From contig NZ_JAMZMM010000003.1 of the NCBI RefSeq assembly GCF_024178385.1, positions 1 through 50,999 on the forward strand: a stretch of DNA of 50,999 bases. Reading direction: 5' to 3'. The DNA is from Limnofasciculus baicalensis BBK-W-15 (GTDB lineage: Bacteria; Cyanobacteriota; Cyanobacteriia; Cyanobacteriales; Coleofasciculaceae). Position 1 is the stretch's first letter. Every line of letters begins with the position of its first letter. This document shows, piece by piece, positions 4,641 through 50,933 of the stretch. The notes under the pieces are model-generated. The model made no database searches. It was not told the origin of the DNA and worked only from the letters and a program-made list of their open reading frames with translations. The position numbers and the translations under genes are program-made.

Positions 4641-7535
4641 ATGGGTTTTAAGTTAATCTTGCGTAGTCGTGGTTTTCTGCTATTCCTGTTCGGAATCTGT
4701 CTGAGTACCGTACTCTTTGCCACGAAAGCTACTTCCATTCCACCAACTCTCCCTCAATCGAAACCAGCAGTCACCTCTGCTTATAGCGTTAATGACAATA
4801 GCAATTCGCCACAAACGGCTGTAAAACTAGTGTCAGCAAACAAATCTACCGACACCCCACTAAAATTAACCCAAGGTGTCCGTAAGACAGTATTGGATAA
4901 TGGTCTTACTGTCCTTACTAAAGAAGTCCATACTGCGCCTGTTGTTACTGTACAGGTGTGGTATAAAATTGGTTCTCGTAATGAATCCCCAGGTGTGAAT
5001 GGGATTGCCCACCAATTGGAACACATGCTATTTAAAGGTACAAAAGATCGTCCGATTCAATTCGGTCGTCTTTTTAGCGCTTTGGGCAGTGATTTCAACG
5101 CTTTCACCAGTTACGATCATACTGTTTATTTCGGTACTGTAAAACGTGAAAAGTTGACACCGTTACTAACCTTAGAAGCGGATCGAATGGTAAATTCAAC
5201 CATCGATTCAGAACAATTAGAAACAGAAAAGCGGGTAGTAATTTCTGAGTTACAAGGTTATGAAAATAGCCAACAATATCGACTTAGCCGCGCTGTAATG
5301 CGTCAAGCTTTTCCCTATCAATCTTATGGTTTACCTGTAGGTGGAACAAAGGCAGATGTGGAGAAATTTACTGTTGAGCAAGTACGGGAATACTACCATA
5401 AATATTATCGCCCCGATAATGCCATATTAATTATTGTCGGCGATTTTCAAACTGAATCTACTCTGGCTAAAGTCAAAGAAACATTTGGCAAAATCCCTAA
5501 GAATGGGGAGTCGGGAATGGGGAGTGGGGAGTGGGGAAAAACCAATAACCAACAACCAACAACTAACAACCAACAACCAACAACTAACAACCAACAACCA
5601 ATTATCTTAAAGGAACAAGGTAGTGCGACTTTCTTGAATGAAGTCTATCCTTTACCTGCAGCTAACCACCCTGATGGACCTGCTGTTGATGTAATGGATT
5701 ATATATTGACTGGGGGGCGTAATTCTCGACTATACCAAGCCTTAGTGGAATCTGGTATTGCTAGCAACTTTTCAGGTGGTGCAATTAACTTAATTGATGG
5801 GGGTTGGTATGAAATATCAGCAACGGCTGCACCTGGCAATCAGTTGACAGAAATTGAGCAGGTTATTATTTCAGAAATCGCTACTTTGAGTGAGAAAGGT
5901 GTTACCTCCGAAGAACTCCATCGGGCTAAAGCTCAACTGACTGCTACTGTAATTTTAAATAACCGAGACATTACTAGTCAAGCGATGCAGCTTGGTTCCG
6001 ATGAATCTGTTACTGGCGATTATCGTTTTACGGATCGCTATTTAGCGGCAGTCCAGAATATTAGTGCCGCAGACGTACAGCGGGTTGCTAAAACTTACCT
6101 TGCTAGTACTAATCGAACTGTCGGCTTTTTTGAACCAACGAAGTTGGATAATCAACCAGAAGGAACGATGGTTGGTGGGAGTCAAACTAGCGAAAAGTTT
6201 AATGCTGGACCACCTGTAGATCCTGCGGAGGTAGCTAAGTATTTGCCTCCGGATGACTCTCAGACTGGACAAATGAATCAGTCTCTACCAGAGGAGTTTA
6301 TTTTAGCTAATAATCTGCGGGTGTTGCTGTTACCTGATTCTAGTACACCTACTGTAACTTTAAGTGGTTATATCCGCGCGGGAACTGAGTTTGATTCAGA
6401 AGTTTTAGCAGGGTTGGCTAGTCTGACTGCTGATAATTTAATGAATGGAACGAAAACACGAGATGCGCTGGAAGTGGCGAAAGGATTGGAAGATTTAGGT
6501 GCAAGTTTAGGCTTTAGTGCCAGCAGGGAAGGTGTCAGTATTGGTGGGTATAGTTTAGCGCCAGATTTGCCAATGCTGATCGAAACATTCTCAGATGTTG
6601 TGCAAAATGCGACATTCCCTACGGATCAGTTAGAATTAAGCCGTCAACAAACATTAACTGACCTAACTGTAGCATTAGATGAACCAGCAGTAGTCGCCAG
6701 ACGGACTTTCCAACAAGCGATTTATCCAGTAAATCATCCTTTCCATGCTTTTCCCACAGAAGAAAGCTTAAAGCGGATTACCCGCGAAGATGTGGTGAAG
6801 TTTTATCAGACTAATTACCGTCCTGAAACAACTATACTGACTCTTGTTGGAGATTTCGAGCCAGCCAAAGTGCGATCGCTATTAGAATCTCAATTATCTT
6901 CTTGGAAAGGAATTGGTAATCCGTCAATTCCTCAATATCCAGAGATATCTATGGGGAAGACTATGGTACAATTAAACCCAATTCTTCCCGGCAAAACCCA
7001 ATCTATTACCTTGTTGGGTAATGAAGGAATTAGCCGCAAAGATCCTCGTTTCTATGCGGCATTAGTGCTGAATCAAATCCTCGGTGGCGATACTTTATCC
7101 AGTCGATTAGGAGCAGAAATTCGCGATCGCCTTGGTTTGACTTATGGTATTTATAGCTACTTTCAGGCGGGACAACATCGAGGACCATTTGTAATTTCCA
7201 TGCAAACTGCGCCAGAAGATAGTAAAAATGCGATCGCAAGTACTATCGCTGTGGTGCAGCAGGTACGAGAAAAAGGTGTAACAGCGGCTGAAGTTGCCAC
7301 AGCTAAACGAGCAATTAGCAGCCAATATCCTGTTGGTATTGCTAATCCAGATGGTTTGGCTCAAACTATTCTGGATAACGAAGTTTATGGATTAGACAAG
7401 AGCGAAATTCGCGCATTTGTCAATCAAATTGAAGGAGTTACTTTAGCAGAGGTAAATCAGGTGGCGAAGGAGTTGCTCCATCCAGATAATTTAGTAGTTG
7501 TGACTGCGGGTCCTTCTGTGGCGGCTTCTCGGTAG
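4641..7535 (+). CDS. M16 family (pitrilysin/insulinase-like) metallopeptidase, double domain
   Basis: Exported zinc peptidase of 964 aa. Residues 10-30 form a signal peptide or anchor. The first M16 domain has the inverted zinc motif HQLEH (H124, E127, H128) and the third ligand E203, 75 residues after H128 as in the family. The second half (from about residue 550) has the C-terminal M16 fold with a SRLGAEIRDRLGLTYG element containing the R/Y pair, and lacks HxxEH, so it is the usual non-catalytic partner domain. It probably degrades or processes peptides in the periplasm. Residues 288-320 are a low-complexity insert made from tandem repeats (listed separately). ATG start at 4,641 has no clear ribosome site but precedes a good signal sequence. 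Confidence 0.9.
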   Translation: MGFKLILRSRGFLLFLFGICLSTVLFATKATSIPPTLPQSKPAVTSAYSVNDNSNSPQTAVKLVSANKSTDTPLKLTQGVRKTVLDNGLTVLTKEVHTAPVVTVQVWYKIGSRNESPGVNGIAHQLEHMLFKGTKDRPIQFGRLFSALGSDFNAFTSYDHTVYFGTVKREKLTPLLTLEADRMVNSTIDSEQLETEKRVVISELQGYENSQQYRLSRAVMRQAFPYQSYGLPVGGTKADVEKFTVEQVREYYHKYYRPDNAILIIVGDFQTESTLAKVKETFGKIPKNGESGMGSGEWGKTNNQQPTTNNQQPTTNNQQPIILKEQGSATFLNEVYPLPAANHPDGPAVDVMDYILTGGRNSRLYQALVESGIASNFSGGAINLIDGGWYEISATAAPGNQLTEIEQVIISEIATLSEKGVTSEELHRAKAQLTATVILNNRDITSQAMQLGSDESVTGDYRFTDRYLAAVQNISAADVQRVAKTYLASTNRTVGFFEPTKLDNQPEGTMVGGSQTSEKFNAGPPVDPAEVAKYLPPDDSQTGQMNQSLPEEFILANNLRVLLLPDSSTPTVTLSGYIRAGTEFDSEVLAGLASLTADNLMNGTKTRDALEVAKGLEDLGASLGFSASREGVSIGGYSLAPDLPMLIETFSDVVQNATFPTDQLELSRQQTLTDLTVALDEPAVVARRTFQQAIYPVNHPFHAFPTEESLKRITREDVVKFYQTNYRPETTILTLVGDFEPAKVRSLLESQLSSWKGIGNPSIPQYPEISMGKTMVQLNPILPGKTQSITLLGNEGISRKDPRFYAALVLNQILGGDTLSSRLGAEIRDRLGLTYGIYSYFQAGQHRGPFVISMQTAPEDSKNAIASTIAVVQQVREKGVTAAEVATAKRAISSQYPVGIANPDGLAQTILDNEVYGLDKSEIRAFVNQIEGVTLAEVNQVAKELLHPDNLVVVTAGPSVAASR
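5502..5601. repeat. In-frame tandem-repeat insert inside the M16 gene
   Basis: A GGGGAGT-type block (about 5,507-5,537) is followed by heptamers CCAACAA/CTAACAA to about 5,601. Three heptamers make 21 bases, so the array reads as the heptapeptide NNQQPTT repeated. It lies between the two subdomains of the first M16 unit. The same two repeat types, in the same order, fill the non-coding gap at 10,731-10,936. Confidence 0.85.
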
Positions 7536-8146
7536 ATTAGTTAGTGCGAGCTGTGCTGTGCGAAGCGCAGATCGCACTTATTTCAGGTATGTGAAGTACA
7601 GAAAAACGACAAAGAAACCCGGTTTCTGAGGTGTACTTCATCCAACTGAAAACCGCTATAAATGAGCCGATAACCTGCACTTTTACCCTTTTGAATATTA
7701 CTATTTTTAACTCTTACTTTGAGAATGAAATAGATGATTCCTGTCACTTCAACGGCTCTCATCTTTTTACCCTTAATTGCTTTTAAATTTATCTTAACCC
7801 AATATCATCATTCTTTTGCCATTTGAACTTATAGCAGTTGCAATAACCGTAGGGTGGGCAGTCCCCACCAACGTAATAATCAGCTTTTTGCCTTATATTG
7901 GGGACTGCCCACCCTAGATAAAACTCTTTTTTTTACATTGGTGCAAGATCTCAGTAGAAGATGATTTGTAGGGAGGAAGCATAAGGGCGATATCCTTAGT
8001 GAAAAAATAAATATCGTCATCTCCCAATGCTTCCCCCAGCCCTAAAGATAAGTCTATAGCACTTCTCAAATGCTAAGAATATAACCAGGCTAACAGTCTC
8101 TTATTTATGTTATTTCCAGTTGACTTCATGTTTAAAACAATACCAT
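7536..8146. other. 610-base gap without genes, several repeats
   Basis: No convincing reading frame. It contains a GC-rich inverted repeat (AGTGCGA ... TCGCACT, about 7,541-7,580) just after the peptidase stop that could help end its transcript, an AGAAACCCGGTTTCT palindrome around 7,613, the long inverted repeat listed next, and GGTGCAAGATCTCAGT near 7,942, which resembles the flank of the nested palindrome at 35,760. Confidence 0.55.
7850..7916. repeat. Perfect 18-base inverted repeat
   Basis: Left arm 7,850-7,867 (TAGGGTGGGCAGTCCCCA) and right arm 7,899-7,916 are exact reverse complements around a 31-base loop. The outer TAGGGTG half resembles the smaller TAGGGTGCGTTA palindromes elsewhere in the window. 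Likely a mobile or structural repeat rather than a terminator, since no T-run follows. Confidence 0.85.
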
Positions 8147-49593: not shown

Positions 49594-49929
49594 TTAAGAA
49601 TCGAGCGATCGCTCCCGGTAGGGCAGATCGGCGCTACCATTGACTTGACCGAGTTGATCGCGCACATCATCAATCGCTGTATTAAGCTGGGCAATTTTAT
49701 CCTCCAAGCTGCGACGTGCCATTTCCATGCTTTCTTCTGTCTGAAGCTCGGCTTTTTTCGTCTTGAGTGCTTTAGCTTCTGAGCGTTTCGCATTCAGCAA
49801 AGGCTGTTCGGTATCGTCGCTGTTATTGTTCCGCCTATCGGCTACCAATGCGCCAATAACTCCACCAACCACTCCACCCAATAGAATTCCAGCTAAAAAT
49901 CCGCCTGTAAAACCATCACGCTGACTCAT
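49594..49929 (-). CDS. YtxH-like membrane protein with coiled coil
   Basis: 111-aa protein: a Gly-rich hydrophobic segment (TGGFLAGILLGGVVGGVIGALV, residues 8-30), a polar linker and a long charged helix likely to form a coiled coil (SEAKALKTKKAELQTEESME; LEDKIAQLNTAIDDVRDQLG). Resembles the YtxH/gas-vesicle-like family of stress proteins. A good GGAGG precedes the ATG at 49,929, which shares one base with the stop of the iscB remnant, so that remnant's transcript could reach it. Confidence 0.72.
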   Translation of the reverse strand: MSQRDGFTGGFLAGILLGGVVGGVIGALVADRRNNNSDDTEQPLLNAKRSEAKALKTKKAELQTEESMEMARRSLEDKIAQLNTAIDDVRDQLGQVNGSADLPYRERSLDS

Positions 49930-50618
49930 CAGAACACCTCCGTCGTCGGAAACTCTGTGTCTTTAGACCAGAGAGGAAGAGGCGGCAGCGGTTTTAACCG
50001 CCTACAATATTCAAAATCCATAGTTGTAACCATCCTTTTGTTTAATAAATACTCACGCACCTCGTATCCAGCTAATTCACCTTGTTGATATTCAATCCCT
50101 GATATTTCTGGGTTTTCCATTTGCTGCAAATCAAACCTAACCAACTCTTGAGAAATAGCGCTAATTGGTGCAATTCTTGACAGTTTGTCAACCCAATTTA
50201 AAGTTGTTTCAACTCGATGCTGAAGGCTTGGCGCTAACCAACCTTTTGGTCTGGTTCGATTGAGGAATCGAGCTTGACGATATCTTGTGTGTCGATTTCT
50301 ACGACCACGACGCAATGAACGTCTGGATTCTAGAGAAGCTTTAATTGTTTGACCACGGTGGCTTAATTCGGCTACCCAAATCAGATTACAACCTGAAAGA
50401 ATAGCTAATCCTGTTGTTTTAGAACCAGGGTCAATCTTCAGGATCAAAGGTTCTGGTGTGCCTGCTACCTCCTTATTCAAAATAATTGTGAACGGGTACA
50501 ACCTAAAAACTTTAGCCTTGCCAACATTCAGTAACTTACGAGCTACGGATGGTTTGCAGGGTGTCAAATGTTTACGGTTGGTATCAAGAACAAAAACGTA
50601 ATTTGCTAGTTTAGACAT
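49929..50618 (-). pseudogene. iscB: Truncated IscB (RNA-guided nuclease ancestor of Cas9)
   Basis: 229 codons with the IscB layout: PLMP-type N-terminus (VFVLDTNRKHLTPCKPSVAR), RuvC-I with D63 (LKIDPGSKTTG), an Arg-rich bridge helix (about 97-118, RRSLRRGRRNRHTRYRQARF) and RuvC-II with E158 (ISQELVRFD). After EVREYLLNK the HNH domain and RuvC-III are missing; the last 37 codons are unrelated, including a GGCGGTTAAAACCGC palindrome and a GGTCTAAAGACAC copy. Catalytically incomplete, so counted as broken although it could still bind its RNA. Start ATG at 50,618; TTG at 50,657 is less likely. Confidence 0.85.
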
Positions 50619-50639
50619 TGTTGCGTCTGACCTTTTCAG

Positions 50640-50870
50640 TAATGTTAGCTTTGACAAAGTTTTAAGAGCTTTTTAGACCTGCAACACTATCTCAGTGACA
50701 GAGCAGACTGTTTAATTGCAGATGACAGAGCAAGGGACTAGCTACGCATCCACGGGGTGTCGTGACTCGAAAAACGTAGTACTCGTGGTACTTAGTCTGG
50801 CAAGCATGGCTTCAACTAATCTCTTAGCTGAGAGCCACCGTGTCTTTAGACCGGGGTTGCTTACCTTCTT
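50640..50870 (-). ncRNA. Probable HEARO / omega RNA of the IscB element
   Basis: The gene-free stretch directly upstream of iscB on the same strand is where omega (HEARO) RNA lies. From about 50,870 downward it has compact helices: GGTCTAAAGACACGGTGGC, CTCAGCTAAGAG with AGATTAGTTGAAGC, GTACCACGAGTAC hairpin, ACGTTTTTCGAGTCACGACA, then a pair of TGCTCTGTCA copies. The conserved order resembles the HEARO family. Exact ends unknown; 3' end probably overlaps the coding start region. Confidence 0.65.
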
Positions 50871-50933
50871 TTATACCTAACTTTTTTCCAGATTAACGGT
50901 TCCGTAACTAAACTGCCTAGTAATGGGAGAATG

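What the first reader, a model, noticed from the sequence alone, without database searches (positions are those of the whole stretch)
49929..50870. Truncated IscB with its probable omega RNA still in place
The protein keeps the N-terminal domain, RuvC-I, bridge helix and RuvC-II but lost HNH and RuvC-III, and the last codons read through a palindrome and a copy of GGTCTAAAGACAC that also stands near the 5' end of the upstream RNA (49,957-49,970 and 50,840-50,852). This suggests a deletion between repeats, leaving a nuclease-dead RNA-binding module. Dead relatives of such nucleases have in several cases been reused as regulators, which is the idea worth testing.
Basis: partly seen in the sequence, partly recalled or inferred. 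Interest (0 to 1): 0.75.

Follow-up and report, generated by a model that had tools for sequence, protein, structure and literature searches.

The report
Decayed IscB element before start codon
This is a jumping gene that landed exactly between a host gene's leader and its start codon in a cyanobacterium and later lost the DNA-cutting half of its RNA-guided nuclease; the loss itself is ordinary decay, but the whole family's habit of sitting at start codons is a testable and less expected pattern.

Summary
The HEARO/omega RNA is real (RF02033, 120.6 bits, 50864-50639 minus). The protein is an IscB reduced to its N-terminal part, RuvC-I, bridge helix and RuvC-II. The explanation changes. GTGTCTTTAGACC is the core of a hairpin at each end of the element; both copies are intact, about 70 and 800 nt from the deletion junction. 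The deletion is 676 bp with 4-nt microhomology (CAAA) at 50040-50037, fixed against intact relatives. The ORF's tail is a frame-shifted stump of iscB plus element end. The element (49930-50864) lies exactly between the 5' leader and the ATG of a small YtxH-like gene: relatives lacking it have leader and gene joined. It is one of about 40 HEARO copies in this genome; only three have an intact iscB. Signs of reuse are absent: no second guide target, no other copy of this junction, no unusual selection, RuvC-III and the TAM-reading end lost. Unexpected: these elements often end in a Shine-Dalgarno-like sequence followed by ATGA, and 27 of 42 such ends start an ORF of 60 aa or more (20% expected, P about 7e-10). 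Verdict: ordinary non-autonomous IscB relic; the start-codon habit and a group II intron at the same iscB codon merit follow-up.

The parts
49930..50864 (-). whole element: non-autonomous, internally deleted IscB/HEARO (ISC, IS605-like) insertion
   Evidence: ends defined by alignment with intact elements L065-L067, mini-elements L042/L017/L015/L038 and the empty site in relatives
50639..50864 (-). HEARO / omega RNA (RF02033), at the 5' end of the element
   Evidence: cmscan 120.6 bits, E 1.8e-24, full model
50865..50880 (-). presumed guide: host sequence just 5' of the HEARO (TTAGGTATAAAAGAAG), which is the 5' leader of the downstream host gene
   Evidence: position inferred from known omega RNA architecture; no other good match in the genome; leader homology
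   Evidence: DNA fold z -3.75; same hairpin in intact elements
50037..50618 (-). surviving iscB codons 1-194: N-terminal domain, RuvC-I (D63), bridge helix, RuvC-II (E158)
   Evidence: Pfam RRXRR 6e-75, NCBIfam guided_IscB, 84-86% identity to intact iscB of G001
50037..50040 (-). deletion junction, 4-nt microhomology CAAA; 676 bp (HNH, RuvC-III and most of the C-terminal domain) missing; frame shifted
   Evidence: alignment with L065, L066, L067 and parental ends
49929..50036 (-). frame-shifted tail RMVTTMDFEYCRRLKPLPPLPLWSKDTEFPTTEVF, made of the last iscB codons and the element end; its stop TGA overlaps the next ATG (TGATG)
   Evidence: predicted disordered (residues 160-229 pLDDT < 50)
49988..50001 (.). 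palindrome GCGGTTTTAACCGC of the element end, also seen in L067 and in mini-elements
49953..49973 (-). terminal hairpin at the ATGA end (CTCTGGTCTAAAGACACAGAG); holds the other repeat copy
   Evidence: corresponding hairpin in intact elements
49937..49941 (-). GGAGG, Shine-Dalgarno-like, supplied by the element end 7 nt before the host ATG
   Evidence: sequence; same feature in L065-L067, L042, L017, L078
49926..49929 (-). ATGA: target-site motif (presumed TAM) and start codon of the host gene
   Evidence: present in empty-site orthologues; ATGA or GTGA at 54 defined element ends
49594..49929 (-). host gene, 111-aa YtxH/glycine-zipper-like protein, whose leader was split from its start codon by the insertion
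   Evidence: orthologues in 18 of 21 other relatives searched

Best explanation
An IscB/HEARO insertion element of the IS605 type inserted exactly between the 5' leader and the start codon (ATGA) of a YtxH-like gene, without duplicating the target. It later lost 676 bp of iscB through a 4-nt microhomology deletion. What remains is a non-autonomous relic with both end hairpins, a well-scoring omega RNA and an open but frame-shifted ORF. The truncated protein cannot cut DNA and most likely has no RNA-guided DNA-binding activity, because RuvC-III and the TAM-reading end are gone. The host gene is presumably still translated from its own ATG with a Shine-Dalgarno sequence that the element brings. 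Shown here: insertion point, deletion, hairpins, omega RNA match, and genome-wide abundance of similar relics. Inferred: expression, lack of protein function, translation from the element-borne Shine-Dalgarno, and mobilisation in trans.
For: HEARO hit. Full alignment with intact elements fixes the deletion and shows the repeats at both ends of intact copies. Empty site: leader AACCGTTAATCTGGA...AAAGTT and ATGAGTCAGCG belong together in relatives; leader alignment scores up to 41 against shuffle maxima near 23. 40 HEARO matches in the genome, 30 over the cut-off; of those 30 loci 3 have intact iscB, 6 (with the window) partial and 21 none detected. The partial copies have different junctions (L016, L018, L020). 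HEARO-plus-end mini-elements share the same element end. Three Y1 transposase matches in the genome could act in trans. Structure: pLDDT 66.9, pTM 0.56, residues 160-229 below 50.
Against: The surviving 194 codons show no stop or frameshift, and dN/dS to intact copies is 0.06-0.08, like intact-intact pairs, so decay has not proceeded far; this fits a recent deletion but does not exclude a kept function. The deletion starts exactly at a domain boundary (end of RuvC-II), where two other broken copies also start. Upstream context is limited: the contig ends 135 bp beyond the element.
Confidence: 0.88

Rival explanations
1. The truncated IscB is a domesticated nuclease-dead regulator, analogous to TldR proteins derived from TnpB.
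For: Omega RNA and an open ORF remain; the N-terminal part is as conserved as in intact copies; the guide corresponds to the 5' leader of a host gene.
Against: The guide has no second match better than 2 mismatches in 17, and fewer near-matches than the reversed control pattern (25 against 58). The junction was not found in 390 other genomes. RuvC-III and the C-terminal TAM-interacting domain are lost, whereas TldRs are described as losing nuclease activity without apparent loss of guide RNA and DNA binding (PMC13418256; TAM domain PMC9755519). The tail is a frame-shifted artefact.
Confidence: 0.04
2. The element works only as a guide-RNA donor: its omega RNA is used in trans by intact IscB proteins elsewhere in the genome, which would cleave the empty allele of this site and so help retain the copy.
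For: HEARO well above the gathering score; three intact iscB genes in the genome; many HEARO copies without any ORF.
Against: The three intact IscBs are only 58-62% identical to the window protein and sit with other HEARO subtypes and other element ends; cross-use is untested.
Confidence: 0.15
3. Truncation at codon 193/194 is favoured by a break hot spot: a group II intron inserts into iscB at exactly this codon in related genomes, and abortive homing could start deletions there.
For: Intron (RF00029 hit, 580-aa ORF with reverse-transcriptase-like sequence) splits iscB after codon 193 in L230, and the same intron start follows codon 193 in L205 and L208. L146 (EYLLEK|LM) and L214 (EYLLD|LPKTHW) break at the same codon.
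Against: The intron was not found in the window's own genome. Short microhomology alone explains the window deletion, and a shared CTAGAT may explain L214 (inferred, its parent was not aligned). The search favoured copies with intact codons 1-194, which biases the sample.
Confidence: 0.1
4. The deletion arose between the two GGTCTAAAGACAC copies.
For: The two copies exist, and repeat-mediated core deletion between near-terminal palindromes is known for IS605-type elements (PMC3119063).
Against: Such an event would remove the core and one copy; both copies and most of the core are present, and intact relatives have both.
Confidence: 0.01
5. Assembly or sequencing artefact.
For: Draft assembly of 762 contigs; the contig ends 135 bp beyond the element.
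Against: A 676-bp deletion with clean microhomology lies about 960 bp inside the contig; other copies show different deletions of the same kind.
Confidence: 0.03

Closest known systems
IscB/HEARO (OMEGA) elements of the IS200/IS605 superfamily
   Same: HEARO RNA upstream of iscB, RRXRR domain, end hairpins, insertion next to a short target motif without target duplication
   Different: HNH, RuvC-III and most of the C-terminal part deleted; no own transposase
Non-autonomous IS605 derivatives (PATEs, MITE-like elements)
   Same: near-terminal palindromes at both ends, core deleted, no transposase, many copies per genome (PMC3119063)
   Different: keeps the omega RNA and 194 codons of the nuclease; the deletion is by 4-nt microhomology, not between the palindromes
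IsrB (natural HNH-less nickase with a HEARO-type omega RNA)
   Same: no HNH domain; RuvC-I, bridge helix and RuvC-II match IsrB (8dmb)
   Different: IsrB keeps RuvC-III and the C-terminal domain; the window protein does not, and its closest relatives are full-length IscBs (80-86% identity)
TldR (TnpB-like nuclease-dead repressors)
   Same: an IS605-family RNA-guided nuclease that has lost its nuclease
   Different: derived from TnpB, guide matches a promoter elsewhere, conserved association with a cargo gene (PMC13418256); none of these is seen here

Membership tests
IscB/HEARO element (as a decayed member) | HEARO / omega RNA directly upstream of the ORF on the same strand | tested here: met
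   RF02033 50864-50639, 20 nt before the ATG at 50618
IscB/HEARO element (as a decayed member) | RRXRR domain with RuvC-I, bridge helix, RuvC-II | tested here: met
IscB (functional nuclease) | HNH domain and RuvC-III | tested here: not met
   no HNH in Pfam scan while the intact L065 protein has it; 676-bp deletion
IS605-type non-autonomous element | subterminal imperfect hairpins at both ends | tested here: met
   fold z -2.7 and -3.75; corresponding hairpins in intact elements
IS605-type non-autonomous element | insertion at a fixed short target motif without target duplication | tested here: met
   leader and ATGA adjoin in relatives without the element; ATGA or GTGA at 54 defined ends
IS605-type non-autonomous element | mobilised by TnpA (Y1 transposase) in trans | not testable with these tools
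   Y1 transposases exist in the genome, but their match to these ends is unknown
IsrB | RuvC-III and C-terminal domain retained without HNH | tested here: not met
   both lost
TldR-like dead regulator | guide complementary to a regulatory target elsewhere in the genome | tested here: not met
   no match with fewer than 2 mismatches in 17; fewer near-matches than the control pattern
TldR-like dead regulator | same dead form conserved across strains | tested here: not met
   no junction-spanning match among 390 other genomes of the order, two candidates scored per genome

The most novel reading that the evidence does not exclude
Cyanobacterial IscB/HEARO elements are specialised to sit at start codons: they insert 5' of ATGA, bring their own Shine-Dalgarno sequence so that the host gene stays translated, and thereby take their guides from the 5' leaders of host genes. 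Relics such as this one would then still hold a guide against the ribosome-binding region of the gene they sit in, and could affect or be expressed with it.
Probability: 0.35. Interest if true: 0.6.

Novelty: new member of a known kind. Interest (0 to 1): 0.4.

Why it matters
As a single locus it is a worked example of how IscB elements decay: precise insertion, microhomology deletion, omega RNA outliving the nuclease. The wider observation matters more. If these elements really prefer or survive at start codons with a self-supplied ribosome-binding site, that explains how a genome can carry dozens of copies cheaply, and it says what many omega RNA guides are made of: host gene leaders. It also makes a clear prediction for expression studies. 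The shared ATGA/GTGA flank itself is, to my recollection, already described for HEARO (Weinberg et al. 2009, not held in the library and so not checked); I did not find the start-codon enrichment in the library searched.

Tried and rejected
Repeat-mediated deletion between the two GGTCTAAAGACAC copies: rejected by alignment with intact elements. Second genomic target for the guide: none above control. Same truncated element elsewhere: none found; no plasmid match. Ktedonobacter and other distant ends do not share the ATGA end type recognised by the rule and were left out of the start-codon test. L116, L135, L115 and two duplicate loci were removed from that test by hand. The first rule placed a few ends wrongly (GTGAGG inside the element end) and was corrected before counting. 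Some apparent truncations are gaps of N or contig ends (L127/L210, L211, L209, L218) and were not counted. The library does not hold Weinberg 2009 or Kapitonov 2016.

Full report
What is there. On the minus strand, 50864-50639 matches Rfam HEARO over its whole length at 120.6 bits. Twenty bases later an ORF of 229 aa (50618-49929) matches Pfam RRXRR and the first 194 of 314 positions of the NCBIfam IscB model, and the N-terminal parts of solved IscB and IsrB chains. RuvC-I D63 and RuvC-II E158 are present and invariant in the alignments. No HNH is detected, while the intact relative scanned beside it has one.

How the truncation arose. The closest intact elements are in a genome of the same genus (L065, L066) and one of the same family (L067). 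Aligned end to end, the window element lacks one internal block. Parental ends read AACAAA|TGG on the left and CATCAAAAGGATGG on the right; the window reads AACAAAAGGATGG, so 676 bp were lost with a 4-nt overlap CAAA at 50040-50037. Because 676 is not a multiple of three, the last iscB codons and the element end are read in a shifted frame, which gives the odd tail RMVTTMDF...TTEVF. AlphaFold gives residues 160-229 a pLDDT below 50.

The repeats. GTGTCTTTAGACC at 49957 and 50840 is the core of an imperfect hairpin at each end. Intact elements and HEARO-only mini-elements have corresponding hairpins. Near-terminal palindromes, sometimes identical at both ends, are the hallmark of IS605-type elements (PMC3119063). 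They are not the scar of the deletion, which lies about 70 nt from one copy and 800 nt from the other.

Where it sits. The element ends ...GGAGGTGTTCTG and is followed by ATGAGTCAGCG, the start of a 111-aa YtxH-like gene with orthologues in 18 of 21 other relatives. In relatives the sequence upstream of that ATG is not element but a leader, AACCGTTAATCTGGAGAAAAGTT and so on; the same leader stands on the far side of the element in the window, and joining the flanks restores the relatives' arrangement, with a somewhat shorter leader. Twelve of fourteen relatives score above every shuffle. The element thus split leader from start codon and supplied its own Shine-Dalgarno-like GGAGG. The truncated ORF happens to stop with TGA overlapping that ATG. 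One reading frame of three through the element end is open, so this needs no selection.

How common it is. The genome has 40 HEARO matches, 30 over the cut-off. Of those 30 loci, 3 carry an intact iscB, 6 including the window a partial one, and 21 none that these queries detect within 1.5 kb or the contig end. The partial ones are broken differently: L018 lacks the bridge helix to RuvC-II in frame, L020 and L016 have other junctions. Y1 transposases are present. No other genome of 390 searched has the window's junction (only two candidates scored per genome).

Is it reused? Pairwise dN/dS of the surviving part is 0.06-0.08, as between intact copies, so the deletion looks recent; this does not separate a recent death from a kept function. 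The presumed guide has no convincing second target. RuvC-III and the C-terminal part, which reads the TAM in relatives (PMC9755519), are lost. Known dead relatives of TnpB that act as regulators are described as retaining guide RNA and DNA binding (PMC13418256). Reuse is unlikely.

An unexpected pattern. Fifty-four element ends could be defined without looking at what ORF follows. All are followed by ATGA (42) or GTGA (12), as the end rule requires. For ATGA, 27 of 42 begin an ORF of at least 60 aa, against 20% of other ATGA sites in the same loci (P 7e-10); against ATGA sites whose use would not break a gene the figure is 21% (26 of 42 with at least 80 aa, P 1e-8). GTGA ends show no excess (2 of 12). 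Ten of the downstream ORFs were scanned and all match known domains, most of them complete and near the N-terminus: LivH-type permease, TauE, protein kinase, response regulator, ammonium transporter and others; in the window's own genome one (L035) reads as an acyl carrier protein (by eye). Limits: the loci are not all independent, end placement was partly curated by hand, and start codons were not taken from annotation.

A second unexpected pattern. In three related iscB genes (L205, L208, L230) a group II intron, or its first 99 nt up to the contig end, stands exactly after codon 193, the boundary between RuvC-II and HNH. The window deletion and two other broken copies (L146, L214) start at the same codon. 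This may be chance or sampling, because copies with intact codons 1-194 rank highest in the searches, but it can be tested.

Verdict. A non-autonomous relic of a known kind of element, with a well-defined insertion and deletion history. The regulator idea is not supported. The start-codon habit of the family is the part worth pursuing.

Noticed in passing
L230:1018-3491, also L205 from 1297 and L208 (minus strand) at its contig end: A group II intron (RF00029 match, 580-aa ORF with reverse-transcriptase-like sequence) interrupts iscB exactly after codon 193, at the RuvC-II/HNH boundary; the complete copy is in one genome and two contig-end copies in another.
   Followed up: partly
L214 (G114:C1, about 4728470) and L134/L215: IscB copies with in-frame deletions that remove all or part of HNH but keep RuvC-III (311 and 351 aa open frames), giving an IsrB-like layout that probably arose independently of IsrB.
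   Followed up: partly
L146:3750-4590 (Cyanomargarita calcarea): A second HEARO plus IscB truncated right after codon 194 (EYLLEK|LM), with the element end also lost; an independent case of the same truncation point.
   Followed up: partly
L018 (own genome C309, about 7000-7962): An IscB copy with an in-frame loss from bridge helix to RuvC-II, leaving a 314-aa open frame with HNH and RuvC-III.
   Followed up: no
L035, position 1893 in the HEARO-forward orientation (own genome C302): A HEARO mini-element sits directly before the start codon of what reads as an acyl carrier protein gene, usually an essential gene.
   Followed up: no
window 49926-49931: The truncated ORF's TGA and the host gene's ATG share a base (TGATG), a layout that allows translational coupling.
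   Followed up: no
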